Shown: positions 28,901-64,000 of the stretch, piece after piece
How the letters are laid out: the number at the start of each line of letters is the position of its first letter
How positions within the stretch are numbered: the stretch's first letter is position 1
Assembly (NCBI RefSeq): GCF_009856865.1
Contig: NZ_WVUD01000022.1
Coordinates: 1-64,000, forward strand
Source: Solidesulfovibrio aerotolerans
GTDB lineage: Bacteria > Desulfobacterota > Desulfovibrionia > Desulfovibrionales > Desulfovibrionaceae
DNA length: 64,000 nt
Direction of reading: 5' to 3'
Position numbers and translations under genes: made by a program
The notes under the pieces: model-generated
The model's database searches: none
Told to the model about the DNA's origin: nothing
The model's input: the letters and a program-made list of their open reading frames with translations, nothing else

Positions 28901-28943
28901 GGGGGTCCGGGGGGGATTATCCCCCCCGGCCGCCGGAGGCATT
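28901..28943. repeat. Palindromic repeat with GCCGCCGGAGGCATT module
   Basis: A 23-base hairpin at 28907-28929 (arms CCGGGGGGGAT, single-base loop) is followed directly by CCGCCGGAGGCATT. It is nearly identical to the element at 44134-44169. It sits inside the ORP operon between the NifX-like and FmdB genes, 22 bases before the latter, and may attenuate or stabilise the transcript there. Confidence 0.75.
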
Positions 28944-44101: not shown

Positions 44102-44169
44102 CCCCCTTGAAATACGTCTTCCTTTCAGGGGGTCCGGGGGGGATGATCCCCCCCGGCCGCCGGAGGCAC
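44102..44169. repeat. Palindromic repeat with GCCGCCGGAGGCA module
   Basis: A first hairpin at 44102-44132 (CCCCC plus TGAAA against TTTCA plus GGGGG) is followed by a 23-base hairpin at 44134-44156 with CCGGGGGGGAT arms, then CCGCCGGAGGCA. The second part is almost identical to 28907-28943. It lies downstream of the minus-strand secreted-protein gene, between its stop and the next operon start. Confidence 0.75.
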
Positions 44170-49173: not shown

Positions 49174-49264
49174 CCCCAGGGCCGCTCTTCGCCTGGAGAT
49201 AACCGCTTGCGACCGGCGGCCTGCTGGAGATCTTCTTTCTTTTCGGCTGCTCTTTCTCCATACC

Positions 49265-49457
49265 ATCGGCCCCGCTTCGGGGCCGTGGGCCGGTTGAGGT
49301 CGGGATTTGGGCCTGGACCGGCGCGCCAGCGACGGCCCAGACCCAAATCCCGACCCCATCCTAGCAAGCCCCCGCCGCCGACCCAGCCTCCCAACCGCCT
49401 GCCCCACTCGGGGGTCCGGGGGGGTGACCCCCCCGGCGGGTCCGGGCAGAGCCCGGT
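49265..49457 (-). repeat. Composite hairpin element A
   Basis: Read on the minus strand: box 1 (CCGGGC-TCT-GCCCGG at 49442-49456 plus CCGGGGGGG-TCA-CCCCCCCGG at 49416-49436), a G-rich spacer, a 19-bp inverted repeat (49337-49355 with 49298-49316, one wobble pair), then an 8-bp hairpin CGGCCCCG-AAG-CGGGGCCG at 49267-49285 followed by AT. The same order occurs in elements B and C. It fills most of the 342-base gap before the SAM hydroxide adenosyltransferase gene; I see no gene there. Confidence 0.75.
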
Positions 49458-49515
49458 CTTCGCCTTTCCGCCTTTCCGCTTTTCCTTCTTACCGCCAGAG
49501 GAGGCCATACCCGCC

Positions 49516-50313
49516 ATGCACACCGCGCCGCTTATCGCCTTGCTGACGGATTTCGGGCTGGCTGATCCGTATGTCGGCCAGATGCAGTCTGTCCTTATCG
49601 CGGCTGCGCCGGGCGTGCCCCGTGTGGACATAAGCCATGGGGTGGCCATGGGCGACGTGGCCCAGGCCGCCTTTTTCCTGGCCGCGACCTTGCCGTGGCT
49701 GCCGCCGGGAGCGGTGGTTCTGGCGGTGGTGGACCCGGGGGTGGGCACGGCCCGGCGGGTGCTGGTCGTTGAGATCGCGTCCCGGCTGGTGGTGGCCCCG
49801 GACAATGGGCTGCTCACCTTGGCCCTGGCCCACGAGACCGGCTTTCGGGCCTTTGACGCCACCCCCCGGTCGGTGCCGGCCAGCGCGACGTTTCACGGCC
49901 GCGACGTGTTTGCGCCGTTGGCCGCCCGGCTGGCCCAGGGTGAATCGCCGACGGCCCTGGGCTATGCCCTGTCGCCGGACGAGTTGGTGAGGCTGCCGGG
50001 GCTGGCCGCAACACGCCAGGGCGATGTGGTCACGGCCCGGGTCCTGTCTGTGGACGGGTTTGGCAATGTGGCCACGAGTTGCGACGTGGCCCGATTTGGC
50101 GGGCGGCTCTCCCGGGCGCAGGTGCTGGCACCGGTGGCGCGCCGGCTGGTGCCGGCTGTGACGTACGCCGATCTCGGGCCGGGCGAGGTGGGCCTTTTGG
50201 CCGGCAGCCAGGGCTATCTGGAGCTGGCTGTGGGCGGCGCTTCGGCCGCGGCGGCGCTCGGGCTGGCCCGGGGGGATCGCCTGGAACTGTTCTTGCCGCT
50301 GGCGGGCGTATGA
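49516..50313 (+). CDS. SAM hydroxide adenosyltransferase (DUF62)
   Basis: A 265-residue enzyme of the fluorinase/chlorinase/DUF62 family, which uses S-adenosylmethionine and water (hydroxide) to give adenosine and methionine. Signature blocks are LLTDFGLADPYVGQMQSVL, VVDPGVGTARRVLVVE, VVAPDNGLLTLAL and FHGRDVFAPLAARLAQG. Halogenase-specific loops are not obvious, so hydroxide adenosyltransferase is the best call. Its stop overlaps the cobS start (ATGA), an unexpected pairing with cobalamin synthesis. Confidence 0.88.
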   Translation: MHTAPLIALLTDFGLADPYVGQMQSVLIAAAPGVPRVDISHGVAMGDVAQAAFFLAATLPWLPPGAVVLAVVDPGVGTARRVLVVEIASRLVVAPDNGLLTLALAHETGFRAFDATPRSVPASATFHGRDVFAPLAARLAQGESPTALGYALSPDELVRLPGLAATRQGDVVTARVLSVDGFGNVATSCDVARFGGRLSRAQVLAPVARRLVPAVTYADLGPGEVGLLAGSQGYLELAVGGASAAAALGLARGDRLELFLPLAGV

Positions 50314-51035
50314 AAATCGTTAGGAATTTTCTGGCGGCTTTGGGCTTTCTCACACGCCTTGGGCCGGTGGCGACAGACCCGGACATGGCGGGCTGCGTGC
50401 CGCTTTTTCCCGTGGTCGGGGCCACCCTTGGGCTGGTTTTGACCGTGCCGCTGGCCCTGGGCCTTTTCGGGGGCCATCCCCTGGCCGGGGCCTTTGTCTA
50501 TGCCGTGGCCAATCTGGCCCTGACCCGGGGCCTGCACCTGGACGGCTTTGCCGACGTGGCCGACGCCTGGGGCAGTCTGGCCCGGGGCGAGCGCTTTTTC
50601 ACCATCATGAAAGACAGCCGCATCGGGGCCTTTGGCGGCATGGCGTTGGTGGTGGCCATTGCCGGGCAGGCCTGCTTTGGGGCAGAACTCTTGTCGTCCG
50701 GGCAGGTGTGGCTTTTGGCCGCTGCGCCGGTTGCCGGGCGCGCGGCAGCGGTGGCGCTCATGCGGGCCTGCGCCGATATTCCCCGGCCCGGTCTGGGGTC
50801 GCTGTGCCTGCCTGGGGCCACCTGGCCCAACACGCTTTTTGCCGTGGGCTTGGGGTTGGTCTGTCTGCTGGCGGCAGGCGGGCTGCGGGCAGCGGTGTGG
50901 GGGACGGTGTTGGGTGGGCTGACGCTGTGGCGTCTGGCCCGGCTGGCCCGGCAAAACGGCGGCGTAAACGGCGATTTTTTGGGCGCGGCCATTGTCGGCT
51001 GCGAGTTGACGACCCTGGCCGGCGGGTTGTTGTAG
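50310..51035 (+). CDS. cobS: Adenosylcobinamide-GDP ribazoletransferase (cobalamin synthase)
   Basis: A 241-residue polytopic membrane enzyme that joins adenosylcobinamide-GDP with alpha-ribazole in the last steps of cobalamin synthesis. The family block HLDGFADVADAWGSLARG followed by IMKDSRIGAFG carries the conserved Asp residues. Start ATG 50310 overlaps the SAM hydroxide adenosyltransferase stop, and the in-frame extension to 50079 is spurious. No other cob gene is adjacent; cbiC lies 9 kb downstream. Confidence 0.94.
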   Translation: MKIVRNFLAALGFLTRLGPVATDPDMAGCVPLFPVVGATLGLVLTVPLALGLFGGHPLAGAFVYAVANLALTRGLHLDGFADVADAWGSLARGERFFTIMKDSRIGAFGGMALVVAIAGQACFGAELLSSGQVWLLAAAPVAGRAAAVALMRACADIPRPGLGSLCLPGATWPNTLFAVGLGLVCLLAAGGLRAAVWGTVLGGLTLWRLARLARQNGGVNGDFLGAAIVGCELTTLAGGLL

Positions 51036-51094
51036 CAAGTGGCCCGGGTTTTGCTGTTGGGGAGAACGACCGACAAAAAACCGGCAGGGGACAC

Positions 51095-51538
51095 ATGGCC
51101 AAACCTTTTCGTTTCAATCTCCAGCGCGTCCTGGACATCCGCGGCCAACTGGAAGAGCGGGCCAAGATGGAGCTGGGCAAGGCCATGGCCGCCTGCTCCG
51201 AGAAAGAGCGCGAGATTCACCGGCTGGAAAACGAAAAAAACGCCCGCGAATCCTCCATGTCCCAAAAGCCCACGGTGACGCCCGAGGAACTCTGGCTCTG
51301 GCAGGCCTACCGCACCCGGCTGGTGGACGACATCCGCACCTCCCATGTCCGGCTGGCCGAACTGAACGAAGTCCGGGAACGCTGCCGCCGCACCCTGGTG
51401 ACGCGGGCCAAAGACAAGAAATTGCTGGACAAACTCAAATCAAATAAGGCCGAAATCCATGCCTACGAAGAACGCCTCGCCGAGCAGAACGAAAACGACG
51501 ATATGGCGTCCATCCGCTATCAGCCGCCGCTTGTCTGA
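51095..51538 (+). CDS. fliJ: FliJ-like flagellar export chaperone
   Basis: A 147-residue coiled-coil protein starting MAKPFRFNLQRVLDIRGQLE, the usual FliJ N-terminus, followed by heptad-rich helices. FliJ binds the FliI ATPase ring and FlhA in the flagellar type III exporter. SD CAGGGG. It is followed by the MotE-like gene, which overlaps or abuts it. Core export genes (fliI, fliH) are not in this window. Confidence 0.82.
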   Translation: MAKPFRFNLQRVLDIRGQLEERAKMELGKAMAACSEKEREIHRLENEKNARESSMSQKPTVTPEELWLWQAYRTRLVDDIRTSHVRLAELNEVRERCRRTLVTRAKDKKLLDKLKSNKAEIHAYEERLAEQNENDDMASIRYQPPLV

Positions 51539-51563
51539 GCTGGGCGAGCGGGTGCTGGTGGTC

Positions 51564-52238
51564 ATGGAGCGCGTCTCCGGCCGCATTGCCCCCCGGGCCA
51601 CCAAGGTGCTCGGGATTTTCGTCATGCTGGCGGCCATCAAGCTCGGCATCCTTTTTTTCATGGGCCTGGATTTGCTGCTGCCCGATCCGCCTGTTCAGGT
51701 GACCCAGAATTCCCGTCTGGCCGCGCCGGTCCTGCCCGGACCGTTTGCCGGCCCCACGCCGGTCCTGGCCCAGCAGGCCCCGGCCCCCATGCCCCCGGCC
51801 ACCATGCCGCCAAGCGCCACGCCGCCAGCCAATACCACGGGCGCGCCCGACTCCAACGCTTTGCTTAAGCGCCAGGACGAGTTGGATCAGCGCGAACAGG
51901 GGCTTAAAAGCCTTGAGGGCGAGCTCAATTCCCGCATTGCCAAGCTTAAAGAGATGGAAACGAGCATCAAGGCCATGCTGGAAGAGGCCAAGGGCGTGAA
52001 AGACCAGAAGCTGAAGCATCTTATCGACGTGTATTCCAACATGAACGCCAAGCAGGCGGCCAAGGTTCTCGAAACCCTGGACAACGGCATCGCAGTCAAA
52101 ATTCTGGCAGGCATGCGCGGTCGCGGGGCCGGCGAAGTGCTCAATAACATGGAAGCCAAAAAAGCCGCCGGCTTAACGGAAATGCTCACCAAGATCCAAC
52201 TGCCGCCCACGGCCGGGGAAAACCCCGGCGACATGTAG
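51564..52238 (+). CDS. MotE-like (MgtE N-domain) flagellar protein
   Basis: About 224 residues: one membrane helix (TKVLGIFVMLAAIKLGILFF), a Pro/Ala-rich periplasmic linker, a coiled coil (KRQDELDQREQGLKSLEGEL) and a C-terminal MgtE_N-type helical repeat (YSNMNAKQAAKVLETLDNG, MRGRGAGEVLNNMEAKKAA). MotE-type proteins stabilise or support stator assembly. The start is unclear: the frame opens at 51459, inside fliJ, and TTG 51531, GTG 51552 and ATG 51564 are all possible. I give the ATG that avoids the fliJ overlap. Confidence 0.72.
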   Translation: MERVSGRIAPRATKVLGIFVMLAAIKLGILFFMGLDLLLPDPPVQVTQNSRLAAPVLPGPFAGPTPVLAQQAPAPMPPATMPPSATPPANTTGAPDSNALLKRQDELDQREQGLKSLEGELNSRIAKLKEMETSIKAMLEEAKGVKDQKLKHLIDVYSNMNAKQAAKVLETLDNGIAVKILAGMRGRGAGEVLNNMEAKKAAGLTEMLTKIQLPPTAGENPGDM

Positions 52239-52330
52239 GGGGTGCGCCCGGTCTTTTCCGGGGAGCCGGGCCAGCAGGAGCCACGGGCACTTGGCCGGCG
52301 ACATGGAGGGGATGCGTTCGGTATTCACCG
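52225..52330. repeat. Imperfect 36-base direct repeat, 70-base period, at the MotE-like gene 3' end
   Basis: The block 52225-52260, which contains the MotE-like stop codon, recurs at 52295-52330 with 29 of 36 bases identical (both start CCGGCGACATG). The second copy lies in the untranslated gap before truA. This looks like a local duplication of the gene end. Confidence 0.6.
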
Positions 52331-52415
52331 AGCTGGTTGCCACGCTTTGACCATCGGGATTTATGATTGTCATTCACAAAAAGCAGCGATGTCATTTTGC
52401 CATCGCGACCGTAGT

Positions 52416-53231
52416 ATGCCCAGAGTACGCCTGACGCTGGCCTATGACGGCACGCATTTCGCGGGCTGGCAGTTGCAGGCTCCGGGCTTTGGCCGCACGG
52501 TCCAGGGCTGTCTGGAGGAGGCGCTCGCCAGGCTATGCGCCGGCCCGGTGCGGGTCCACGGGGCCGGGCGCACCGACTCCGGGGTCCATGCCCTGGCCCA
52601 GGTGGCCCATTGCGACGTGCCGGAATCCCGGGCCGGCTTCCCCTGGCAAAAGGCGCTCAACGCCTTGCTGCCCAAGGACATGTCGGTGGCCCACGCCGCC
52701 GAGGTGGCCCCGGATTTCCACGCCCGCTTCGATGCCGTGGGCAAGGAATACCGCTACACGCTGTGGACCGACCCCGGCTCCCTCCTGCCCTGGCGACGGG
52801 CCTACGTCTGGGACGTGGGGCGCTACGGCCCCCTTGATGTGGCGGCCATGGACGCCTGCGCCGCGCTTTTCGCCGGCAGCCACGATTTCGCCGCCTTCCA
52901 AAACGCCGGCACCGACGTGAAATCCACGGTGCGTCAGATGCATGGCGCCTGGCGTCTGCCGGGCACGCCGGAACAGGAGATGGTCTGGCAGTTTCGGGCC
53001 GAAGGGTTTCTCAAACAGATGGTGCGCAATCTCATGGGCGCGCTGGTGGCGGTCGGGCGCAGTAAAGTTTCCCCCCAAGATATCCGATCAGTTCTGACGA
53101 AAGGGCAAAGAAGCCTTGCGCCGGGGACTGCTCCGGCCTGCGGGCTTTGCCTGCACGCGGTGGAGTACGCGTCAGATGGCCGGGGGCATAAGCGACATCT
53201 ATTTCACCAGCCTGAGGCTGGCCAAGGGTGA
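52416..53231 (+). CDS. truA: tRNA pseudouridine synthase A
   Basis: A 271-residue enzyme that makes pseudouridine at positions 38-40 of the tRNA anticodon stem. The N-terminus RVRLTLAYDGTHFAGWQLQ and catalytic Asp in GAGRTDSGVHALAQ are classic, followed by YRYTLW and FLKQMVRNLMGAL. ATG 52416 is chosen over the in-frame 52242 and 52389, although its SD is weak. Its 3' end overlaps the next gene by 56 bases. Confidence 0.95.
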   Translation: MPRVRLTLAYDGTHFAGWQLQAPGFGRTVQGCLEEALARLCAGPVRVHGAGRTDSGVHALAQVAHCDVPESRAGFPWQKALNALLPKDMSVAHAAEVAPDFHARFDAVGKEYRYTLWTDPGSLLPWRRAYVWDVGRYGPLDVAAMDACAALFAGSHDFAAFQNAGTDVKSTVRQMHGAWRLPGTPEQEMVWQFRAEGFLKQMVRNLMGALVAVGRSKVSPQDIRSVLTKGQRSLAPGTAPACGLCLHAVEYASDGRGHKRHLFHQPEAGQG

Positions 53232-55284
53232 GTCCGTAGCCGAGGCGTCTTCAGCCACGTCCGTGCCCTCGGTGCCCGGTGCCTCGTCCCAACTGCCGCG
53301 CGATGCCTGGACCAGCAGCGAGAATGCCGGCAACCTCCTTACCGCCGGCTTGTCCCTGCGTCTGTCAAAGTTCGAGCGGGCGCTGTCGCGATTTAACTGG
53401 CCGACCCTTGAAGCGGGCTGGCAGGACTCCCGGCTGGTGGTGCGTGATCCGGGCCTGACCGGCCAGATCCGGGCCGAGGCCGCCCCGGTGGGCACGGCCA
53501 TCAATCCGCTCAAATACCTCTCCAGCGCCAGGACCTCCATCGCCGCCTCGGGCATAGCCCCGGGGGATTACCGGTTTGCCCTGACCCAGGGCGGGCACAA
53601 GGAAGCGTTTGCCGTGTCCGTGGCCGCGAACGACTCCTGGGGAAAAGTGCTGGGGAAGGTGGCCGAGGCGGTCAATAATTCCGGGAAATTAAGCGTTCAC
53701 GCCGATGTCGCCCTGCAGCAAGCCCCCTTTGCCCTCGACACCTCCCTGCCGGGCACAGGCACGACCCTGACCCTGTCGGTCAACCCCAACCGCGTGGCCC
53801 AGGACGTCGCCTGGTCCGATACCTCCGGCCGGCTCCTTAACGCGCTTGGCCTGCGGGCCTCGGCCACGCCCACCGGCCCGGCCGAGGCCCGCCCCTGGCT
53901 TATCAGCTCGCCGCAGCAGGCCCGGCCGACGTTTCTCCATACCACAGGCTACGATCCCGGGGCCGCCACGACCCTGGCCACAGGCCTGCACACCTTTTCC
54001 TTTGCCACCGGCAGCGCAGCCCAGCCAACGACATATGTCTCGGCCGCCCACGGTCCCGACGCCGCAACGACCATCGCCCCTGGAACCTACGATTTCACGT
54101 TGACCCTCGGCAATCAGACCCGCAACCTGTCCGTGGCCGTCAAGGCCGGCTGGACCTGGGGCGATGTCCAAAACGTGGTCGCGGGGCAGATCAACGCCCA
54201 GCCCGCCTCGGTCTGGACGGCCGATAAGACCGGCGTCGAGCTGGTGGACAGCCCCTTTTACGCCCTCCCTGGCGTCACCGCCACGAGCGCCACCGTGTCC
54301 GTGCCCTCCGCAACCGATGCCACGGCCAATACCAGCCAGCGCCGGCTTACCGTGCAGACGGCGGCCGGTTTCGAAGACCAGACGCTCAAATTAACCGACG
54401 GCACCGGCGGCATCCTGTCCGCCCTGGGCCTGACCACCGCCCTGCGCGGCACGGTGGTGTCCATGCCCGTACGCCAAGGGGATACGGCTGGCGATGTGCT
54501 TGGCTCGGTGACGCGGGCCGTTGCCATGGCCACCAGCCGGGTGGCCGCCACGACCATCAAGGAAATACTCCCTTCTGCCGTGCTCCCGGGGCAAAACCTT
54601 TCGCTGCTTGGCCAGGCAGCCACGCTGACGCTGCAAAATCGCCGCCTGGGCGAGACGCTGACGCTTAATGACGGCGCAACCGGCCTCCTGACCAGCCTGG
54701 GGCTTAGGAACACGTTGCCGGGCCAGGACGGCGAACTGATCGCGAATGGGACGGCCCACGCCTCGGAAAACAACCACTACGCCCTGGATTCCGGCCGCCT
54801 GCGCCTGGAAACCAAGGCCGACATCGGGGAAGTCTTGCCATTAAGCGTCACCAAGGCCATGGACAGCCTGGAACAGCGCCTGGGCGATGTCGTGTCCAGC
54901 TACAACGACGTGCGCAAATACCTTTTCCAAAACAGCGGTTTTTTCACGCCGCAGGTGTCTGAACACCTCGGCCGGCCCGTGACCAACAACTGGGACGGCC
55001 TGAACAACCTCGGCTTTGGCAAGACCCGCCGCGACGAACAACTCTGGGTGCAAAGCGATGCGCTCTGGCATGGCCTGTACACCGCCAGCACAGCAGCCGA
55101 ACAAACCCTGGCCCTGGCTCCCGCCGGCCTTATCCCGGCCTGGAAAACCGCTGTTGGCGGCATCAAACAGGCTGGCGTTTCCAGCTTCCTGACCCCGGAA
55201 ACCGAAAATCTACGCCGCATCGCCCCGCGCGTCAGCGAGTTCGAACTGGAACGCAAACACCGGCTGGTCAACCTGCTGGGATGA
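53176..55284 (+). CDS. Flagellar hook-associated (FliD/flagellin)-like repeat protein
   Basis: A 702-residue protein. Two internal modules share APGDYRFALTQGG / APGTYDFTLTLGN followed by a W-G-x-V segment, and two further ones share LTDGTGGILSALGL / LNDGATGLLTSLGL, which resemble the hook-associated FliD repeats. The C-terminus is helical (KAMDSLEQRLGDVVSSYNDV), as in axial flagellar proteins. No signal peptide, consistent with type III export. It overlaps truA by 56 bases; GGTGGAG lies about ten bases upstream. A FliD-, FlgL- or flagellin-related role is likely but not certain. Confidence 0.65.
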   Translation: MAGGISDIYFTSLRLAKGESVAEASSATSVPSVPGASSQLPRDAWTSSENAGNLLTAGLSLRLSKFERALSRFNWPTLEAGWQDSRLVVRDPGLTGQIRAEAAPVGTAINPLKYLSSARTSIAASGIAPGDYRFALTQGGHKEAFAVSVAANDSWGKVLGKVAEAVNNSGKLSVHADVALQQAPFALDTSLPGTGTTLTLSVNPNRVAQDVAWSDTSGRLLNALGLRASATPTGPAEARPWLISSPQQARPTFLHTTGYDPGAATTLATGLHTFSFATGSAAQPTTYVSAAHGPDAATTIAPGTYDFTLTLGNQTRNLSVAVKAGWTWGDVQNVVAGQINAQPASVWTADKTGVELVDSPFYALPGVTATSATVSVPSATDATANTSQRRLTVQTAAGFEDQTLKLTDGTGGILSALGLTTALRGTVVSMPVRQGDTAGDVLGSVTRAVAMATSRVAATTIKEILPSAVLPGQNLSLLGQAATLTLQNRRLGETLTLNDGATGLLTSLGLRNTLPGQDGELIANGTAHASENNHYALDSGRLRLETKADIGEVLPLSVTKAMDSLEQRLGDVVSSYNDVRKYLFQNSGFFTPQVSEHLGRPVTNNWDGLNNLGFGKTRRDEQLWVQSDALWHGLYTASTAAEQTLALAPAGLIPAWKTAVGGIKQAGVSSFLTPETENLRRIAPRVSEFELERKHRLVNLLG

Positions 55285-55332
55285 CGGCGGGTGGCGCGAG
55301 GCGCGGGCGTGGTGCGAGGAGAAAAGCGGAGA

Positions 55333-55555
55333 GGAAGACCGGGCTCTGCCCGGACCCGCCGGGGGGATGATCCCCCCGGACCCCTCGGTGGGGGGTGGGA
55401 GTTGGGGACGCGGGTTGGAGGGGACGGCGGCGGCGGGAGTGGTGCGTGAGAAGATGGGGGTTGGGATTTTGGCGGCCGGGTCGGCCGTCAAAGCCCGGCC
55501 GGCCCGGCCGCCAAAATCCCAACCCCCAACTCGCCAGCGGCCCAAGGGGCCGCAT
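55333..55555 (+). repeat. Composite hairpin element B
   Basis: Box 1 at 55339-55379 (CCGGGC-TCT-GCCCGG, then CCGGGGGGA-TGA-TCCCCCCGG), a G-rich spacer of about 75 bases, a 31-bp inverted repeat (55456-55486 with 55497-55527, fully paired if one G-T wobble counts), then hairpin GCGGCCC-AAG-GGGCCGC at 55537-55553 followed by AT. It fills the 302-base gap between convergent genes, where it may also terminate transcription. No gene is visible. Confidence 0.78.
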
Positions 55556-55586
55556 TTGTTCGGGTCGGGGGACTGCTGCGCCCCGG

Positions 55587-56888
55587 CTATTCTTCTTCGA
55601 GGCCGTTGCGGTCGTCGATGACGCGTTTGGTCTTGCCGCAACTGCGCGGCAGCGCGCCCGGGGCCAGGACATCGATCCAGCCGCGCACGAACAGGTGTTT
55701 GCGCATCTCGATGGAAATGGCTTCGGACAGGTTCTGGTCCCGGTCGGCACTGACATCCGGTTTGCGCTCCACCCGCACCACCATCTGATCGCGGCCGTCG
55801 CGGCGCACCAGGCGAATCTGAAATTCGCTGTCCACGTCCTTAAACGTGGCCAGGACGCTGGCGATCTGGCCGGGGTAGATATTGACGCCGCGAAATACGA
55901 ACATGTCGTCGGAACGGCCGAGAATCCGGTCATGGCGCGGCAGGCTCAGGCCGCAGGGGCAGGGTTCGGGGAGCAGGCGCGTCAGGTCGCGGGTGCGGTA
56001 GCGGATAAGCGGCGCGGCTTCCTTACATAAGGACGTCACCACCATCTCGCCCACCTCGCCCGGGGCCACAGGGGCCAGGGTCACCGGATCAAGGACTTCG
56101 AGAATGAACATGTCGGCCCAGTAGTGGATGCCGTCGTGGGCCGAACACTCCAGGCCCGAACCCGGGCCATAGAGTTCGGTCATGCCGGTGATGTCGAAAC
56201 TCTCCTCGATGCCAAGCCATTTTTCAAAGCGCTGCCGCATCTTGTCGGTATGCGTCTCGGCTCCGAAAATGACCTTTTTAAGCTTGATGCGCTTGCGCAT
56301 ATCGCGCTTGTGGACCTCTTCGGCCAAAAGTAAGGCCATGGAGGCGGTGGAGCATAAGCAGGTCGGTGCCAGATCTTCGAGCAACTGGAGGTGGATCTCC
56401 ATGTTGCCCGGACCGATGGGGAGCGCCATGGCCCCGAAATGTTCGCAGCCGAGTTGAAAACCGGCCCCGGCCGTCCACAAGCCGTAGCCCACGGCGATCT
56501 GCACCCGGTCAAGGGTCGTTAAGCCGGCCAGTTCGTAGCAGCGGGCGAACATCGTTTTCCAGACGTCGATGTCGCGCTGGGTATAGGCCAGAATCTTGCG
56601 TTTGCCGGTGGTGCCGGAGGAGGCGTGGATACGCACGACTTTTTCCTCTGGTACGGACAAAAGCGGCAAGGGATAGCCCTGGCGCAGATCTTCGACGGTG
56701 GTCACGGGGAGATTCGGCAGATCCCCCAGGGACAGGGTCTGGCCCGGCTCGTACCCGATGGTGGCCAGCCGGTCGCGGTACACGGCATTGCCGGCATAGG
56801 CGTGGCGGCAGGTCCAGTTGAGGCCGGCGGTCTGCCGTTCGGCCAGGGATTCGGGCGTTACGTGCGGCAGGAAACGGTATGGGGTCAT
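55587..56888 (-). CDS. Phenylacetate-CoA ligase-like adenylate-forming enzyme
   Basis: A 433-residue AMP-forming aryl-CoA ligase of the PaaK type: IHASSGTTGKRKILAYT is the P-loop, FDITGMTELYGPG the adenylation motif, then LIRYRTRDLTRLL and a C-terminal PaaK domain. In many anaerobes such genes activate aryl acids and are often annotated paaK. ATG 56888 follows GGAG. The longer open frame upstream reads into the DMT gene in another phase. It sits 35 bases after the transporter in the same direction. Confidence 0.9.
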   Translation of the reverse strand: MTPYRFLPHVTPESLAERQTAGLNWTCRHAYAGNAVYRDRLATIGYEPGQTLSLGDLPNLPVTTVEDLRQGYPLPLLSVPEEKVVRIHASSGTTGKRKILAYTQRDIDVWKTMFARCYELAGLTTLDRVQIAVGYGLWTAGAGFQLGCEHFGAMALPIGPGNMEIHLQLLEDLAPTCLCSTASMALLLAEEVHKRDMRKRIKLKKVIFGAETHTDKMRQRFEKWLGIEESFDITGMTELYGPGSGLECSAHDGIHYWADMFILEVLDPVTLAPVAPGEVGEMVVTSLCKEAAPLIRYRTRDLTRLLPEPCPCGLSLPRHDRILGRSDDMFVFRGVNIYPGQIASVLATFKDVDSEFQIRLVRRDGRDQMVVRVERKPDVSADRDQNLSEAISIEMRKHLFVRGWIDVLAPGALPRSCGKTKRVIDDRNGLEEE

Positions 56889-56923
56889 GGACGGCTCCGG
56901 GGTAGCAAGATCGGTGGGGGCTT

Positions 56924-57790
56924 TTATCCGAAAACGACGATAAAGAAAACGCCCGCCACCATAACGGCCGCACCGGGAAGGCGGTGGGCCAGATCGGGTT
57001 CGCGAAAGACCGTTGCGCCAAGGAGCACCCCGAAAATGATGCTCAGGCGTTTGACGGCAATGACATAGGAGACCTGCGTCAGGGGCAGGGCGTGCATCTG
57101 GCAGAAAAGCCCCACCGCCTCCAGCAGCCCGGCCAGACAGATGGCCCGGGGAAAGCCGGACATTTCGCGCACGGACTGTCGCAACCGCTTGGCGGCAAAG
57201 GGAAGAAGCGCCAGGGCCGTGGCGGTATAGATGCTGGCCGCCCACAAGGCCGGGGACGAGGCTTGCAGTCCCAGCTTGTCGAAATTGGCCCCGATGCTCC
57301 AGATGGCGGCCACAAGCAGCATCAGGCGCGCTCCGGCGTTGGTGACCAACGCTTTGACCGGCCCGAGCAGGCCGTGGCGACGCTCGCGCAGATTGAGCAC
57401 ATAGGCCCCGGCAACCACCAGGGCGATGCCGGCCAGACCGCCGGGCCGGGGGAATTCGCCCAGCGTGAGCGGTGAGGTTACGAGCAGAAACAGCGGTGTA
57501 AAGGCCAGCATGGGCAGGGTGAGCGAGAGGTCGCCGCGCTTGAGCGCCAGGCCGTAGAGCCAGTAGGTGACGCCGCCCAGGGCACCGCCCAGGACCAACA
57601 GCGGCCAGAACGCAGCGGTGGTCACCGTGTCCGGGGAAGCGGCGGCAAACAGCCACAACACGACAGCCGCCCCGGCGCTGTAGAGCAGCATGGCCAGGGT
57701 GGGATCGGTGCGGGCCATGGCGGCTTTGAGGAAGGTGTCCTTGACCGCCTGGGTCAGGGCCGTGACCAACGCCAGAAGAAACCACTGCAT
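56924..57790 (-). CDS. DMT/EamA family transporter
   Basis: A 288-residue protein with ten hydrophobic helices in two EamA repeats; the second ends PLTQVSYVIAVKRLSIIFGVLLG, the typical conserved segment. The substrate is unknown; the adjacent aryl-CoA ligase suggests it might move an aromatic acid, but this is only positional. ATG 57790 has AAGG nearby; the frame upstream is not protein-like. Confidence 0.85.
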   Translation of the reverse strand: MQWFLLALVTALTQAVKDTFLKAAMARTDPTLAMLLYSAGAAVVLWLFAAASPDTVTTAAFWPLLVLGGALGGVTYWLYGLALKRGDLSLTLPMLAFTPLFLLVTSPLTLGEFPRPGGLAGIALVVAGAYVLNLRERRHGLLGPVKALVTNAGARLMLLVAAIWSIGANFDKLGLQASSPALWAASIYTATALALLPFAAKRLRQSVREMSGFPRAICLAGLLEAVGLFCQMHALPLTQVSYVIAVKRLSIIFGVLLGATVFREPDLAHRLPGAAVMVAGVFFIVVFG

Positions 57791-58286
57791 GCCTTCGCCC
57801 TGCCGCCTTGGGATTGGCCGCGCGGGCCGTTTTGGGGGCACGGTACAGACGCGCGGCAGCGGCGGCAAGCGAAGATGCGCCTGGGTGGCGCGCCAGGGCC
57901 GCACCGCGCTCGGGCCGGCCAAAATGCCAGGCACTGCCCCTGCGGTGCGCCGCAGCCTTTCGCCACCACAGCGGCTCCACCGCACTTGGCCGCATGACGA
58001 GGCATTGTGCCAACGTCGAACAGGCACTCGCATCGGTCCGTGATGCGCTGCCGCGCCCGCTGCCAGACGTTGCAATGTTTCCTTAAATGACGCTTGCCTT
58101 CATGCGCTTTCCAGGTCACAGAGGGGGTAATGGGACAATTGATGCTGCGGCTTCGCCAGAGGCTGCAATCCCGCATTCCGTTTGTTGCACAAGACGAACC
58201 ATTACTCTGGAAACGATTTGACCGTCATCCACGGGGAAAGCGCATTGGGCGCATCGCCGAGTTACCTGCAACCGGAGGCTACATTC
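57791..58286. other. 496-base divergent gap
   Basis: This lies between the DMT transporter (minus) and a small secreted-protein gene (plus). Frames here are arginine- and cysteine-rich shadows without ribosome binding sites. I find no tRNA, hairpin repeat or promoter that I can support. Base composition drops toward AT near 58170-58280, probably the promoter of the small gene. Confidence 0.4.
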
Positions 58287-58550
58287 ATGAAATTTGTTCT
58301 GCCTATCATCGCTCTTTTTGTCGTTCTTTGCTCTTCCGGCTTGGCTTTCGCCGGATCAGACGATGCAAAATGGGTGGCCAAATGCATTTCCGACAACAAG
58401 GATGAAAAAGTCTCCATCGACGTCATCACCAAATATTGCACCTGCATGAACAACAAGATGGACGACAACGAAACGTTGTCCATCACAGCCTGGGAAAAGA
58501 CGCATCCGGCCGAGCGCGCCGCTTGCGACAAGGAATCCGGCTGGAAGTAA
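58287..58550 (+). CDS. Small secreted four-cysteine protein
   Basis: An 87-residue protein with a signal peptide (KFVLPIIALFVVLCSSGLAFA) and a mature part of about 65 residues with four cysteines (AKCISD, YCTCMNN, AACDKE), probably paired in the periplasm. ATG 58287 has CGGAGG at good spacing. I do not recognise a family. It is followed by an 8-base tandem repeat and a terminator. Confidence 0.7.
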   Translation: MKFVLPIIALFVVLCSSGLAFAGSDDAKWVAKCISDNKDEKVSIDVITKYCTCMNNKMDDNETLSITAWEKTHPAERAACDKESGWK

Positions 58551-58581
58551 CTTCGGCTGTTGCGGCGCGGGTGGCCTGGGC

Positions 58582-58643
58582 GGCCGGATGGCCGGATGGC
58601 CGGATGGCCGGATGGCCGGATGGCCGGATGGCCGGATGGCCGG
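58582..58643. repeat. Tandem repeat of GGCCGGAT, seven units
   Basis: Seven perfect copies of the 8-base unit GGCCGGAT fill 58582-58637, followed by a partial copy. It lies in the 3' untranslated region of the small secreted gene and before its terminator. The unit length is not a multiple of three and no gene crosses it, so coding phase variation is unlikely; copy number is expected to vary. Confidence 0.95.
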
Positions 58644-58674
58644 GGCGAGTGGCGCACTGCGCTGTTGTTGTAAA

Positions 58675-58708
58675 GGGGCAGATCGCTTTGGTCTGCCCCC
58701 CTTTTTTT
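58675..58708 (+). terminator. Rho-independent terminator
   Basis: GGGGCAGA (58675-58682) pairs with TCTGCCCC (58692-58699), followed by a run of seven T at 58702-58708. It ends the transcript of the small secreted protein on the plus strand. Confidence 0.85.
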
Positions 58709-58789
58709 GCCCTTGGACAACACGCCGTACTGCGTAACTCCAAATGCTCACCGCCAACACCTTCGCCGCTCCCCTCCCCAGACAACAAA

Positions 58790-58984
58790 CGGCCGGAACC
58801 TGTGAGAATTCCGGCCGCCGTCGGGGTTGAAGGGTTCTGGAGGTGAGGATGCTATCTCTGCCGGGCCAGGATGGGACGCGTCCTGGCCGGGGGCTTGCCG
58901 TGGAGCGGGCCGCATCGCCGCCGCCAGACGCCACTGGCGGCGGCGAGTGCCCTTGACGCCGGACTGGGCCGGTGCGTTGGACCC
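58790..58984 (-). ncRNA. Candidate Fur-regulated structured small RNA
   Basis: On the minus strand, downstream of the Fur-box promoter, three strong hairpins follow in about 195 bases: CGCCGCCGCCAG with CTGGCGGCGGCG (58916-58945, 12 perfect pairs), GGCCAGGA with TCCTGGCC (58864-58888), and GGCCGGAA with TTCCGGCC (58791-58816) ending in a GTTTGTTGT tract that could terminate. No convincing ORF is present; a TTG-started 95-codon frame exists but is arginine-rich after 15 codons. Start and end are inferred from the promoter and last hairpin. Confidence 0.4.
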
Positions 58985-58990
58985 GGTGTA

Positions 58991-59019
58991 ATTGAACTGA
59001 TAATAATAATCAAGATCAA
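58991..59019 (-). promoter_or_regulatory. Fur-box promoter candidate
   Basis: TGATAATAATAATCA at 58998-59012 matches the 7-1-7 Fur consensus TGATAATNATTATCA at all but one defined position. On the minus strand it lies exactly between TTGATC (59019-59014) and TTCAAT (58996-58991) spaced by 17 bases, the layout of an iron-repressed promoter. The surroundings are GC-rich, so this AT island stands out. Confidence 0.55.
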
Positions 59020-59053
59020 ATTTCAACGCCCCCAAGCGAGCAGGCTTTTCCCG

Positions 59054-59575
59054 TTACGGGCAGCGGCCGGCGGTGCGGCGACGCCAGCACGTCAGGCCCA
59101 AGGCCAGATTGCCCAGCAGACTCAGGCCCAAAAGAACGTCCCGCCAGCCCGGACCGAGGCGCGACGCCGAGGCAGACGCCAACGGCGCAACATCTTGGGG
59201 CCCCCCAGGGGCCGGCGCATCCGCCGCAGCAGCCCCGGCCGGGGGCGCAGCCGCAGCCACCGTGATTTCCCGCTCGGCCCGGTGCCCCTGGCCGTCGGAG
59301 GCCGCCACCCGCCACACGCCGCTTCCCGACGGCAGGAAGGCGAATCCTCCCCGGCCGTCGGTGCGGGCGCTCTGGTAAACCGCTCCGTCAGGACCGGTCA
59401 CCTGGACCTGGGCAAAGGCCATGGGTTCCCCATCGGCGTAGAGAAACACCATGGCCCTGGTCACGCCCGGGTCCATTTCGCGGGAGCCGACGCCATGGGC
59501 CGCAGCAACACCGGGGTGCCTGCCCAGCATCGCCGCCAGCGCCAACAGCGCGAAACATTGCAGTTTCCTTGTCAT
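59054..59575 (-). CDS. NikL-like metal-uptake accessory protein
   Basis: A 173-residue exported protein: signal peptide to AAAHGVGS, an Ig-like carboxypeptidase-regulatory-type domain (FLYADGEPMAFAQVQVTGPDG, TDGRGGFAFLPSGSGVWRV), an Ala/Pro hinge and one C-terminal helix (LLGLSLLGNLALGL) with a basic stop-transfer. This is the NikL layout, seen beside ECF nickel/cobalt transporters. No CbiMQO or NikMN genes are adjacent. Its start overlaps the NikK-like stop by four bases. Confidence 0.72.
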   Translation of the reverse strand: MTRKLQCFALLALAAMLGRHPGVAAAHGVGSREMDPGVTRAMVFLYADGEPMAFAQVQVTGPDGAVYQSARTDGRGGFAFLPSGSGVWRVAASDGQGHRAEREITVAAAAPPAGAAAADAPAPGGPQDVAPLASASASRLGPGWRDVLLGLSLLGNLALGLTCWRRRTAGRCP

Positions 59576-60345
59576 TGCACGAAAAAGGTCAGGGTCGAAC
59601 GCAGCACTTCCTGGTCAGCCGAGCCATCGGCCGGCACGCCCTTGATTTCCGTACGCACCAGCCACAAGCCCGGATGGGTGATGCGCACCTTGGCCACCCC
59701 GGCATCGTCGGTCTCGGTATAATAGGCATAGGTGTTGGGCGTTTTGGTGAAGCCGTCGTAGGTGGCCAGCACCGTGGCCGGCGTCGGCTTGCCGTCGTAG
59801 AGCACCTTCACGTCGAGATCCTGCCCCACTTTGACCGCCGTCGGATCGGCCAGGGGAACCAGTTCCAGCCGCTGCCCGACCACGGCGTCAAATCCGGCCG
59901 ATCCGCCGCCGACCGCCACAAGGGCCTTGGCGAACTTCTCATAGCGGTTGCTCTTGGTTGCGCCCGGCAACTCCTTTTTCGTCCCCTTCTTCATGCCCTC
60001 AGGCGTCAAACTCCAGATCTGCGGCAACCGATGCACTGCGATAATGCCGGTCCCGGCCTTGCCAAAGCTCGCTTCGCCGTCATAGGTCAGCCCCTTGTCG
60101 TTGGCAGTTAACGCCACAGGAACCGCCTTGCCATCGACAAAGACAAACGCCTTGACGTCCGCTGCCGCTTCCAGTTCCTCGCTTTCGATAAACACATGGG
60201 CCGAATGCACCCCGAACGGCACGCCCTTGCCCACAGCCGCCGTCGCCGCACCGGGCTTGATCGCGGTCTCATGCGCCGCCGCCGCACCGGCCAGAATCAA
60301 CACCACCCCAAGCGCACACGCCACCTGTTTCGTCAAATTAATCAT
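59572..60345 (-). CDS. NikK-like (DUF4198) periplasmic metal protein
   Basis: A 257-residue exported protein with a signal peptide ending AAAHET. It is a DUF4198-type protein (SAHVFIESEELEAAAD, then TYYTETDDAGVAKVRITHPGLWLVRTEIKG), the family of NikK proteins linked to nickel and cobalt uptake. His residues after the signal peptide (HE) may bind metal. SD GAGGAG. It shares an operon with the NikL-like gene. It is divergent from cbiC, a corrin-ring enzyme, which suggests cobalt as the relevant metal. Confidence 0.75.
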   Translation of the reverse strand: MINLTKQVACALGVVLILAGAAAAHETAIKPGAATAAVGKGVPFGVHSAHVFIESEELEAAADVKAFVFVDGKAVPVALTANDKGLTYDGEASFGKAGTGIIAVHRLPQIWSLTPEGMKKGTKKELPGATKSNRYEKFAKALVAVGGGSAGFDAVVGQRLELVPLADPTAVKVGQDLDVKVLYDGKPTPATVLATYDGFTKTPNTYAYYTETDDAGVAKVRITHPGLWLVRTEIKGVPADGSADQEVLRSTLTFFVQ

Positions 60346-60396
60346 AAAAGCTCCTCTTTCCAGACACTGACTGAATATGTGTAATCTTTAAATCGC

Positions 60397-60425
60397 ATTA
60401 AAATTCTATTCGTGCCACCTGTCAA
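60397..60425 (-). promoter_or_regulatory. Sigma70 promoter of the NikK-NikL operon
   Basis: On the minus strand TTGACA (60425-60420, perfect) is followed after 17 bases by TTTAAT (60402-60397, five of six), an unusually strong match for this GC-rich genome. The leader of about 45 bases contains ACAC-N11-GTGT, which might be a metalloregulator site; this last point is weak. Confidence 0.7.
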
Positions 60426-60511
60426 CACAAAACGCTGTTCCCCCACCTCGCTGTAATCCTCTCCTTGGCCCGCCGGTCAAAGCCGGCTAGTATGGCAACA
60501 AGAGGTCGCCC

Positions 60512-61180
60512 ATGCCCGAAACAACCCGCATCCTGCCCATCACCGCCCCGGAAGAAATCGAAGCCGCGTCGCTGGCCATCATCGATGCCGAGGTTCCCGA
60601 GCCGCGCCCCTACGTCGGCCCCCAATGGGACATCGTGCGCCGGCTTATCCACACCACCGCCGACTTTGAACTGCTTAAGCTTGTGCGCTTCTCCGCCAAC
60701 GCCGTGCAAGCCGGCCTCACCGCCCTGGACCAGGGCGCAACGATTATCACCGACACCGAAATGGCCCGCTGCGCCATCCCGTTGCGCCGCTTGCAACCCT
60801 TTGGCTGCACTGTGCGCTGTTTTATGAACGACCCCGACGTCGTTGCCGCTGCCGCAGCCGCCGGCTCCACCCGGGCCGCCCTGGCCATGGACTTCGCCCT
60901 GGATCTGCCCGGACCAGTCATTTTCGCCATCGGCAATGCCCCGACCGCGCTGCTGCGCCTCATTAAACGCCTCAACAGCGGTGCCCCCGCCCCGGCACTG
61001 GTCATCGGCATGCCCGTGGGGTTCGTCAACGCCGCCGAATCCAAAGCCCTGCTCCAAACCCGGGCCGACGTCCCCTGGATCACCATCAAAGGCCGCAAAG
61101 GCGGCTCAGCCCTGGCCGGGGCCACAGTCAACGCACTGGCCATCGTGCTACGCGCGGCCGGGGCAGCCGGAAAAGCCTAA
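60512..61180 (+). CDS. cbiC: Precorrin-8X (cobalt-precorrin-8) methylmutase
   Basis: A 222-residue enzyme that moves the C-11 methyl to C-12 to form hydrogenobyrinic or cobyrinic acid in corrin synthesis. Family blocks are RLIHTTADFELLKLVRFS (with the catalytic His), ITDTEMARCAI, FAIGNAPTALLRLI and IGMPVGFVNAAESK. SD AGAGG. As an anaerobe it would use the cobalt-early pathway. Divergent from NikK/NikL and followed by composite element C. Confidence 0.95.
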   Translation: MPETTRILPITAPEEIEAASLAIIDAEVPEPRPYVGPQWDIVRRLIHTTADFELLKLVRFSANAVQAGLTALDQGATIITDTEMARCAIPLRRLQPFGCTVRCFMNDPDVVAAAAAAGSTRAALAMDFALDLPGPVIFAIGNAPTALLRLIKRLNSGAPAPALVIGMPVGFVNAAESKALLQTRADVPWITIKGRKGGSALAGATVNALAIVLRAAGAAGKA

Positions 61181-61186
61181 TGGAAT

Positions 61187-61470
61187 CGGGGCTCTGCCCC
61201 GAACCCCGCCGGGACGCTGTCCCGAACCCTGCCAGGGCTCTGCCCTGGACCCGCCGGGGGGGATCATCCCCCCCGGACCCCCTGGATGGGGCGGGATAGG
61301 CACGTGGGGTGGAGGTGCGGTCGTTGGCGGGAGAGCTGTCGGGAAGGGAGACGGGCGGCGGCGTTTCGACGTTTGTGGCCGCAATTCGGTAGGGGTTCGG
61401 TGGCGCAGGAGCGCCGCCAAACCCCTACCGAATTGCGGCCACAAGGTGCGCCAGCGGCGAAGCGCCGCAT
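61187..61470 (+). repeat. Composite hairpin element C
   Basis: Box 1 here is expanded: hairpins CGGGGC-TCT-GCCCCG (61187), CGGGAC-GCT-GTCCCG (61210), CCAGGGC-TCT-GCCCTGG (61232) and CCGGGGGGGAT-C-ATCCCCCCCGG (61254) follow each other with ACCC[CT]GC links. A spacer, a 34-bp inverted repeat (61373-61406 with 61411-61444, one mismatch, one wobble, AGGA loop) and hairpin GCGGCG-AAG-CGCCGC (61454-61468) plus AT follow. It lies in the 398-base gap between convergent cbiC and ychF; no gene is visible. Confidence 0.78.
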
Positions 61471-61476
61471 TGAAGA

Positions 61477-61511
61477 TAAGGCCAGGAATTGCTTTGCAAT
61501 TCCTGGCCTTA
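61477..61511. terminator. 16-bp stem between cbiC and ychF
   Basis: TAAGGCCAGGAATTGC pairs perfectly with its complement around TTT. This lies in the middle of the convergent gap and probably stops transcription from both sides. T-runs are absent, so it is a stem-only candidate. Confidence 0.6.
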
Positions 61512-61514
61512 AAG

Positions 61515-61570
61515 ATGGGGGGTCCGGGGGCTTCAAGCCCCCGGCGGGGCCTGGGGCAGCGCCCCAGTCT
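61515..61570 (-). repeat. Inverted copy of hairpin box 1
   Basis: On the minus strand, CTGGGGC-GCT-GCCCCAG is followed by GCCCCGC and CCGGGGGCTTGAAGCCCCCGG, then ACCCCCC. It has the same build as box 1 at 61187-61276 but in opposite orientation, so the cbiC-ychF gap carries box 1 at both ends pointing inward. It lies just after the ychF stop. Confidence 0.65.
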
Positions 61571-61578
61571 TATCGCTC

Positions 61579-62685
61579 CTACACATTAAACAAAAAGTGC
61601 ACCACGTCGGCGTCGGCCATGACGTATTCTTTGCCTTCCTGGCGCAGCACACCGGCGGCGCGGCATTTGGCCTCGGTCTGATGCTTGGTGTAGTCGTTAA
61701 AGGCAATGACCTCGGCCCGGATAAAGCCGCGTTCGATGTCGGAATGGATCTCGCTGGCAGCGGCCGGGGCCTTGGTCCCGGTGGTGATGGTCCAGGCCCG
61801 GACTTCCTTGGGGCCGACGGTGAAAAAGCTGATCAGCCCAAGCGTCTGGTAGGCCAGCCGCACCACCCGGTCCAGGCCGGATTCGGTCAGGCCATAGGAA
61901 GACAGAAATTCCTGGCGGTCCTCGTCGGAAAGTCCGGCCAAGTCCTCTTCCATGCGGGCGCACACCACCACCATCTCGGCCCCGCGCGATTCGGCCACGG
62001 CCCGCACCTTGTCCACCAGCGGGTTGTCCTTGCCGATGTCGCCCTCGGCCACGTTGGCGCAGTAGATGACGCGCTTGGCCGACAGCGGCCGGATTTCCTC
62101 AACCAGGGCAATCATGCCCGGCGTGTCCGCGCCCTCCACGGAAATGGCGGGCTTGCCGGCCATCAGGTGGTCGAGCAGGCGCTTGCCGGCCTCGACCTTG
62201 TCGAGCAAGTCCCGGTCCTTGCTGCCCTTGGTCTGCTTGATCATCCGATCCAGCCGGTTTTCCAGGATCTGGGCGTCGGCCAGGATCAGTTCGGTATCGA
62301 TGACGTCGATATCGCGGGCCGGGTCCACCGTGCCGGAGACATGGACCACATCCGGGTCTTCAAAGGCCCGGGCCACGTGGATGATGACTTCGGTTTCGCG
62401 GATATGGGCCAGAAATTTGTTGCCCAGGCCCTCGCCCTTGCTGGCCCCGGCCACAAGGCCGGCGATGTCGGTGAAACGCACCGTGGCCGGCAGCACCTGC
62501 TGGGGCTTGGCCAGCACAGCCAGGGCGTCCAGACGCGGGTCGGGCACCGGGGCGATGGCCACGTTGGGTTCGATGGTGCAGAACGGGTAGTTGGCGGCCT
62601 GGGCGTTCTGGGCTTTGGTCAGGGCGTTAAAAAGCGTGGATTTACCGACGTTTGGCAAACCCACGATGCCGACGGAAAGGGCCAT
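61579..62685 (-). CDS. ychF: Ribosome-binding ATPase YchF
   Basis: A 368-residue Obg-family P-loop protein that prefers ATP. The N-terminus is the G1 motif GLPNVGKSTLFNALT, then NYPFCTIEPN and DIAGLVAGASKGEGLGNKFL (G3), a coiled domain and a C-terminal TGS domain (VGPKEVRAWTITTGTKAPAA, DYTKHQTEAKCRAAG). The position of the NKxD motif has the YchF-type CANVAE form. It is highly conserved in bacteria. The 101-base gap upstream carries the lipoprotein gene's terminator. Confidence 0.97.
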   Translation of the reverse strand: MALSVGIVGLPNVGKSTLFNALTKAQNAQAANYPFCTIEPNVAIAPVPDPRLDALAVLAKPQQVLPATVRFTDIAGLVAGASKGEGLGNKFLAHIRETEVIIHVARAFEDPDVVHVSGTVDPARDIDVIDTELILADAQILENRLDRMIKQTKGSKDRDLLDKVEAGKRLLDHLMAGKPAISVEGADTPGMIALVEEIRPLSAKRVIYCANVAEGDIGKDNPLVDKVRAVAESRGAEMVVVCARMEEDLAGLSDEDRQEFLSSYGLTESGLDRVVRLAYQTLGLISFFTVGPKEVRAWTITTGTKAPAAASEIHSDIERGFIRAEVIAFNDYTKHQTEAKCRAAGVLRQEGKEYVMADADVVHFLFNV

Positions 62686-62751
62686 GGGGCGGTGATCCTT
62701 TAGCGGCGCAGGGAAGCGCCGGATGCGGCCGCTGCGCGGCCGATTACGAGG

Positions 62752-62782
62752 AAAAAGCCCGGACCGCGCCAGCAGTCCGGGC
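62752..62782 (-). terminator. Rho-independent terminator after the lipoprotein gene
   Basis: On the minus strand GCCCGGAC pairs with GTCCGGGC around a ten-base loop and is followed by five T. It lies four bases after the lipoprotein stop. Confidence 0.85.
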
Positions 62783-62786
62783 CGAA

Positions 62787-63416: not shown

Positions 63417-63456
63417 AATCGCACCTGCGACCGCCTCCAGGGCGGACAGGCCGTCT

Positions 63457-63972: not shown

Positions 63973-64000
63973 AGGCGCGTTCCTCCTCAAGGGGTGATGG

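What the first reader, a model, noticed from the sequence alone, without database searches (positions are those of the whole stretch)
55333..55555. Composite intergenic element with covarying long hairpin, three copies in 12 kb
Elements A (49265-49457, minus), B (55333-55555, plus) and C (61187-61470, plus) share one order: GC hairpin box 1, G-rich spacer, long inverted repeat of 19-34 bp, AAG-loop hairpin, AT. The long-stem cores differ (GGTCGGGATTTGG, GGTTGGGATTTTGG, GGCCGCAATTCGG) yet each opposite arm carries the matching change (CCAAATCCCGACC, CCAAAATCCCAACC, CCGAATTGCGGCC). This is compensatory change, seen directly. It suggests selection on a hairpin in RNA or DNA rather than decayed repeats. 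I know no named family with this build.
Basis: partly seen in the sequence, partly recalled or inferred. Interest (0 to 1): 0.8.

Follow-up and report, generated by a model that had tools for sequence, protein, structure and literature searches.

The report
Intergenic hairpins that rewrite both arms
This bacterium and its close relatives carry many long DNA hairpins between genes whose two halves change together between species, most likely because one half is copied onto the other during DNA synthesis, so matching changes here are not by themselves proof of a selected RNA.

Summary
In detail: A, B and C are real, each with a near-perfect 27-34 bp stem in the stated order. They belong to a dispersed intergenic family matched in 14 of 14 held genomes of the genus (named box hits: Solidesulfovibrio magneticus, Desulfovibrio sp. 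DV); outside it 4 of 94 sampled family genomes gave weak matches.

Covariation is confirmed: in 25 copies, 24 of 35 stem pairs change on both sides (0 of 500 shuffles reach this) and about 1% of cells are G-U. Classical RNA selection is probably not the main cause. In 22 orthologous hairpins of two genomes (flanks 92% identical), 39 changed positions are mirrored in both arms, 33 of them transversions or indels; 13 hit one arm, 10 of them transitions. Mismatches survive within 12 bp of the loop (50/852), rarely at 12-23 bp (7/796). 18 of 22 loops are unchanged; one paralogous copy has an inverted loop. This fits DNA-level arm copying (fold-back template switching) plus exchange of stems between copies.

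Function is uncertain: many GC boxes follow stop codons, and B's last hairpin resembles a weak terminator. The build is BIME-like, but REP tags are lacking and Y1 transposases do not track the family. New variant of extragenic palindromic elements.

The parts
49412..49454 (-). element A: GC boxes (GGGCTCTGCCC unit and GGGGGGG-TCA-CCCCCCC box)
   Evidence: sequence; box scan; 90% complementary to the B boxes over 60 nt
49298..49355 (-). element A: long stem HP1, 27 bp, 3 non-Watson-Crick positions
49268..49284 (-). element A: small hairpin HP2 with GAAGC loop
   Evidence: sequence
55339..55394 (+). element B: GC boxes and CCCC..GGGG mini hairpin
55395..55454 (+). element B: G-rich spacer
   Evidence: sequence
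55455..55528 (+). element B: long stem HP1, 33 bp, loop TCAAAGCC, one T.G
   Evidence: matches model R1 at E 1.3e-16
55537..55553 (+). element B: small hairpin HP2 (GCGGCCC-AAG-GGGCCGC) followed by ATTTGTT
   Evidence: found by the terminator scan, which found 21 sites against 14.0 (sd 3.9) in shuffles
61188..61280 (+). element C: three ~23 bp GC units and the G-run/C-run box
61373..61444 (+). element C: long stem HP1, 34 bp, 2 non-Watson-Crick positions
61454..61468 (+). element C: small hairpin HP2 (GCGGC-GAAGC-GCCGC or alike)
   Evidence: sequence
61518..61565 (-). GC boxes on the minus strand behind the convergent gene (61579-62685, YchF-like by its sequence, recalled)
   Evidence: (I6, I15)

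Best explanation
A, B and C are copies of a genus-level, non-coding mosaic element of intergenic DNA. Shown: its build (GC boxes, G-rich spacer, long stem HP1, small hairpin HP2), its dispersal in many copies, and the coordinated change of the two arms between orthologous sites. Inferred: the arms match because DNA synthesis repeatedly copies one arm onto the other. The nascent strand folds back at the hairpin and is primed by the pairs next to the loop, which would spare the loop and the pairs beside it; exchange between dispersed copies also replaces stem segments. Most of the compensatory change is then a product of copying and not of stepwise selection through G-U. Inferred, less surely: many copies serve as 3' ends of the gene that they follow (hairpin barrier, HP2 as a weak terminator, insulation of convergent genes), which keeps a hairpin at a site while its stem sequence is free to vary.
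For: 22 orthologous stems of G008 and G005: 39 mirrored positions (6 transitions, 18 transversions, 15 indels) in 11 stems, 13 one-arm positions (10 transitions, 1 transversion, 2 indels) (Fisher p = 9e-5, positions in one block are not independent). Within-genome arm mismatch 0-3 while the same arm differs by up to 15 edits between genomes. 24 of 35 pairs change on both sides, 8 of 818 cells G-U by my count of the table. Mismatches by distance from the loop in 71 non-redundant stems: 50/852 at 0-11 bp, 7/796 at 12-23 bp. Alternative resolutions of one mismatch: second hairpin A/A in G005, A/C in G008, C/C in a G006 copy with the same HP1; at locus 4104638 the two arms of G012 carry the G005-like and the G008-like foot (by eye). 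One copy with an inverted loop (L023). The G005 stem at 432634 is 93-94% like stems at other loci. Arm homogenisation, loop inversion and a transversion bias in bacteria are described for template switching in PMC8604942 (passages) and PMC8794818 (abstract and Discussion). 0 of 49 family-like stems genic; 30 of 52 intergenic boxes within 150 bp behind a same-strand stop.
Against: No event was seen within a species; changes are not polarised and each position is counted, not each event. The shared mismatch near the AAG loop can also mean selection or common descent. The 5'-arm G/T richness could be ancestral. The donor of most rewritten tracts is unknown; the aroA stems have none in four genomes (capped first look). 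PMC8604942 cites earlier work in which short inverted repeats of proteobacteria are more conserved than their surroundings, and PMC13155455 reports conserved arms and variable spacers near terminators (passages), unlike here. Orthologs of A, B and C in more distant genomes mostly lack the stem, which is little conservation for a needed 3' end. T-tracts after HP2 are modest, and HP2 of A and C was not found by the terminator scan; 19 of 52 boxes lie behind a start side.
Confidence: 0.65

Rival explanations
1. Selected RNA hairpin: the stem is transcribed and needed, and point mutations in one arm are compensated in the other.
For: Strong covariation; 18 of 22 loops identical between orthologs; constant order and an extended foot helix in the B fold; A.C mismatches would be G.U in an RNA from the opposite strand.
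Against: About 1% G-U; mirrored changes are mostly transversions and indels while one-arm changes are transitions; up to 9 mirrored positions in one arm between genomes with ~92% identical flanks; many distant orthologous sites lack the stem.
Confidence: 0.12
2. Selected DNA hairpin or cruciform: a protein binds the extruded arm (loop and foot), and Watson-Crick pairing is kept by selection at the DNA level.
For: Watson-Crick pairing nearly without G.T, conserved loops AAG and TCAAAGCC, intergenic placement.
Against: Selection removes changes and does not by itself produce blocks of mirrored transversions and indels; no binding protein is known to me.
Confidence: 0.15
3. Turnover of a mobile or recombining repeat: stems at one site are replaced whole by other copies, so matching arms simply come in together.
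For: 93-94% paralogs of the G005 432634 stem; large presence/absence differences between species; subfamily stems shared by several loci.
Against: aroA stems have no donor in four genomes, and the best non-orthologous match of the 4104638 stem is 79%; feet and loops stay site-like while the middle changes; mismatched intermediates exist. Y1_Tnp genes are absent from 6 of 14 genomes that have the model's matches.
Confidence: 0.25
4. Assembly or consensus artefact at strong hairpins.
For: Draft genomes G006 and G012 have Ns or contig ends at stems.
Against: G005 (3 contigs) and G008 (6 contigs) carry complete stems; 55 bases of the G008 aroA stem are found 100% identical in G006.
Confidence: 0.03

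Closest known systems
Bacterial interspersed mosaic elements (BIMEs) / REP sequences with RAYT transposases
   Same: Dispersed, intergenic, palindromic, mosaic, in inverted pairs between convergent genes.
   Different: Stems of 24-35 bp against REPs of 20-40 bp in all (PMC3733652, passages); no GTAG tag (0 of 105 stems) and CGTC/GACG near 4 of 105; Y1_Tnp in 8 of 14 genomes only.
Template-switch (quasipalindrome) homogenised inverted repeats, e.g. rRNA and microRNA stems (PMC8794818) and yeast coding repeats (PMC8604942)
   Same: Mirrored multi-base changes, Watson-Crick pairing, an inverted loop, spared loops.
   Different: Here a dispersed family of long bacterial intergenic stems; the authors call the evidence for short rRNA stems less clear.
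Intrinsic transcription terminators
   Same: Many boxes lie behind stop codons; HP2 of B is a GC hairpin followed by ATTTGTT.
   Different: HP1 has no T-tract in the copies printed; tracts after HP2 are short; the genus has separate terminator-like hairpins with A/T runs inside the stem.
Repetitive hairpin-forming elements of mitochondria (sponge RHE PMC2800124, Volvox palindromes PMC2670323; listings and abstract starts only)
   Same: Dispersed palindromes in intergenic DNA.
   Different: Organelles of eukaryotes; no sequence comparison was made.

Membership tests
REP / BIME with RAYT | palindrome tagged GTAG (or CGTC) at one end | tested here: not met
   within 6 nt of stem ends: GTAG/CTAC 0, CGTC/GACG 4 of 105 distinct stems; the GC boxes were not tested
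REP / BIME with RAYT | Y1 tyrosine transposase (RAYT) in genomes that carry the repeats | tested here: not met
   PF01797 in 8 of 14 genus genomes, several broken or partial; none in G002, G004, G006, G009, G010, G012, which have R1 matches; G002 and G006 are incomplete; RAYT was not told apart from IS200/IS605
REP / BIME with RAYT | dispersed intergenic palindromes in mosaic combinations | tested here: met
Intrinsic terminator | GC-rich hairpin followed by a T-tract on the sense strand | tested here: inconclusive
   HP2 of B found by the scan, HP2 of A and C not; 38 distinct HP2 tails have leading T-runs of 2-6
Template-switch homogenised inverted repeat | mirrored multi-base changes making the arms identical | tested here: met
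   11 of 22 orthologous stems
Template-switch homogenised inverted repeat | inversion of the loop | tested here: inconclusive
   one paralogous copy, L023; none among the 22 orthologous pairs
Template-switch homogenised inverted repeat | single-event origin on a branch between near-identical genomes | not tested
   one genome per species was held
Rfam family | match at the gathering score | tested here: not met
   22 matches up to E 1 in window 48000-64000, none at gathering, mostly microRNA models on the stems

The most novel reading that the evidence does not exclude
A dedicated hairpin-diversifying process acts on these loci: loop and foot are fixed recognition parts, and the middle of the stem is rewritten on both arms faster than the surrounding genome by a host polymerase or nuclease system (or an unseen mobile partner), giving a genus-wide set of site-specific, nearly perfect hairpins.
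Probability: 0.12. Interest if true: 0.85.

Novelty: new variant of a known kind. Interest (0 to 1): 0.6.

Why it matters
Matching changes in the two arms of a stem are commonly read as evidence of a functional RNA. Here a natural bacterial family shows abundant matching change that looks like the product of DNA copying: hardly any G-U, rich in transversions and indels, in blocks, and fading towards the loop. It offers a test bed for the claim that template switching creates and maintains stems, and a warning for covariation-based RNA discovery in intergenic DNA.

Tried and rejected
Rfam at a permissive threshold: no match at gathering score. REP/RAYT membership: tag and transposase tests not met. 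One recent inverted duplication per site: rejected, since sites with a hairpin in both genomes differ on both arms. Assembly artefact: unlikely. A named family in print: word searches and four box strings as text (one unrelated paper) listed nothing on these elements; the lists were cut at 8 to 25 papers and the library is open-access PMC only.

Mends and dropped rows: alignment A1 held a wrong row (L171) from my coordinate slip and was replaced by A2. A2 leaves out L300 (stem as L299); L304 (stem as L303) was never put in. Its structure was drawn from one row (L303), and shuffles do not keep relatedness. One search used 22 family and 6 terminator-class pairs (one of the 6, at 339165, fits only by a text filter) and left out 5 of 33; one of the 22 was typed in. 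Hairpins of G008 whose flanks did not map were dropped without a count; these were 5 of 32. Gene calls come from a home-made ORF model (coding fraction 0.61-0.82), and G005 and G008 sites are counted separately although many are orthologs. The 71 clusters include some stems outside the family (an artefactual G-run in L094, for example). The own genome was not scanned whole for stems.

Full report
What is there. The window is G000:C76 of a 4.61 Mb genome in 161 contigs. Elements A, B and C are real. By eye the fuller copies of the own genome share one build: a purine-rich lead, one to several ~23 bp GC units, a box such as GGGGGGATGATCCCCCCGGACCCC, a small CCCC..GGGG hairpin, a G-rich spacer, a long stem HP1, often a CTCGCCA linker, a second hairpin HP2 and an AT-rich tail. 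Common HP1 loops are TCAAAGCC and AAG. B and C lie between convergent genes, A on the minus strand between two plus-strand genes (and reading of its ORFs).

How widespread. DNA search with B matched 22 of 59 genomes, own included: 14 of the genus and 8 others of the family; most weaker hits cover the GC box only, so the box reaches further than the long stem. A covariance model of HP1 plus linker (R1) matches 14 of 14 genus genomes at E<=0.01, with best E below 1e-10 in nine; palindromes match on both strands, so match numbers are about doubled. In a family sample of 99 genomes, five are of the genus; of the other 94, four have one or two weak matches (best E 2.3e-5 to 5e-4), under filters that lose weak matches. 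In 800 kb each, G008 and G005 hold 19 and 27 non-terminator stems of 18 bp or more; 200 kb of G004 and of G010 hold 3 and 1 by my reading.

Turnover between species (stems of score 15 or more). B: the upstream gene was found in 8 of 14 genomes; only the own genome has the long stem behind it; G004 has a terminator-type hairpin and G001 a 16 bp palindrome of box type; one locus (L063) is cut short. C: 14 loci, three cut short; own has the stem, G004 and G011 a 15 bp stem with a similar foot, G002 another 20 bp palindrome. A: 12 loci, four cut short; own, G005, G008 and G003 have stems of 17-27 bp; G004 and G011 have 16 bp hairpins of another type, and L094 (G001) a G-run artefact. Draft assemblies end or hold Ns at such stems, so absence is unsafe there.

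Covariation. In A2 (25 AAG-loop copies from G000, G005, G006, G007, G008; 24 distinct) 93.9% of 818 cells pair, 24 of 35 pairs have changes on both sides, 143 cells are double changes (shuffled mean 38.5) and the score is 0.488 against 0.121; 0 of 500 shuffles reach any of these, and slid controls fall to 27-53% paired. Counted from the table, 8 of 818 cells are G-U or U-G. Columns 32/48 near the loop are unpaired in 16 of 24 rows, in many an A.C, so this position is not kept paired.

Selection or copying. G005 and G008 are about 91-94% identical. In 22 orthologous stems 13 changed positions lie in one arm (10 transitions, 1 transversion, 2 indels) and 39 are mirrored in both (6 transitions, 18 transversions, 15 indels). 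The difference is p = 9e-5 by Fisher's test, an overstatement because positions of one block are not independent. If mirrored changes grew from one-arm changes by compensation they should inherit the transition bias. Eleven of 22 stems have mirrored changes, up to nine in one arm; the other eleven have none. Six terminator-class pairs gave 2 mirrored and 2 one-arm changes, too few to judge. PMC8604942 states that earlier bacterial data showed template switching favouring transversions (passages).

Pattern along the stem. In 71 non-redundant stems (38 perfect) mismatches are 20/426, 30/426, 4/426, 3/370, 5/193 and 3/23 in six-bp bins from the loop outwards. Fold-back priming at the loop predicts spared loop-side mismatches; looser constraint near a loop would predict the same. 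The last bins are few and touched by how my scanner ends stems. The 5' arm is rich in G and T (G/(G+C) 0.68, T/(T+A) 0.69), the direction that PMC8794818 explains by correction to the 5' base (Discussion), but this could be ancestral. Of 50 distinct mismatch contexts oriented by loop, 27 are A.C, 9 G.U and 14 others.

Snapshots. One second hairpin is A/A in G005, mismatched A/C in G008 and C/C in a G006 copy with the same HP1 (G006 flanks were not aligned). At locus 4104638 the arms of G012, a draft, carry the G005-like foot on the left and the G008-like foot on the right, while G005 and G008 are perfect (by eye). One own-genome copy (L023) has loop GGCTTTGA where others have TCAAAGCC, with its HP2 in the usual orientation.

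Exchange between loci. The G005 stem at 432634 is 93-94% identical to stems at other places of G005, G006 and G008 but keeps its own foot. The two aroA stems have no such donor in the four genomes searched, and the best non-orthologous match of the 4104638 stem is 79% (40 candidates per genome scored, list cut). Both processes are DNA copying; their shares are unknown.

Role. In 1.6 Mb of G005 and G008 plus the window, 0 of 49 family-like stems were genic; 25 lay between co-directional genes, 19 convergent, 5 divergent, against intergenic lengths of 233, 91 and 100 kb (rough gene calls, orthologous sites counted twice). Of 57 GC boxes 5 were genic; of the other 52, 30 lie within 150 bp behind the stop of a same-strand gene, 3 further, and 19 behind the start side of an opposite gene. 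B's HP2 is terminator-like; T-runs after 38 distinct HP2 are 2-6. A 3'-end or insulating role is the most likely function but is inferred; carriage as a neutral or selfish repeat is not excluded.

Verdict. Observation confirmed; covariation confirmed; the step from covariation to selection not supported as stated. Best reading: a genus-level family of mosaic extragenic hairpins whose arms evolve in concert by DNA-level copying.

Noticed in passing
window 13715-13758: A perfect 20 bp hairpin GCGGGGAGGGAAACCCTTTT-TTCA of a second, terminator-like type with A/T runs inside the stem; the type is frequent in G004 (9 of 12 stems in 200 kb) and seen in G005/G008, where one shows the same T-to-G change in both arms.
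   Followed up: partly
window 58567-58643: Tandem array of an 8-bp GGCCGGAT-like unit.
   Followed up: no
window 28903-28927 and 44130-44154, minus strand: Two more GC boxes without a long stem of score 18 nearby.
   Followed up: no
L003, L006, L007, L010, L011, L015, L021; also L298, L301, L306: Another long hairpin type with a structured loop, e.g. GGGTGGCTGCAATTTGGGCCGCCG around TGCTCCCCGCGCTTCGCGGGGAGTGT, mostly opposite an HP1 element in the same intergenic region.
   Followed up: partly
window 61477-61511: A further 16 bp hairpin with loop TTT between element C and the minus-strand boxes of the next gene (L069 2466-2500).
   Followed up: no
L034, L058, L181, L186, L305 (G006) and L182, L185, L189 (G012): Draft assemblies hold Ns inside stems or end at or near the elements.
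   Followed up: no
L172, L299, L301, L305, L309-L312, L315, L144: An A.C mismatch near the AAG loop (CCAGGCGG-AAG-CCGCCCGG) recurs across loci and genomes.
   Followed up: partly
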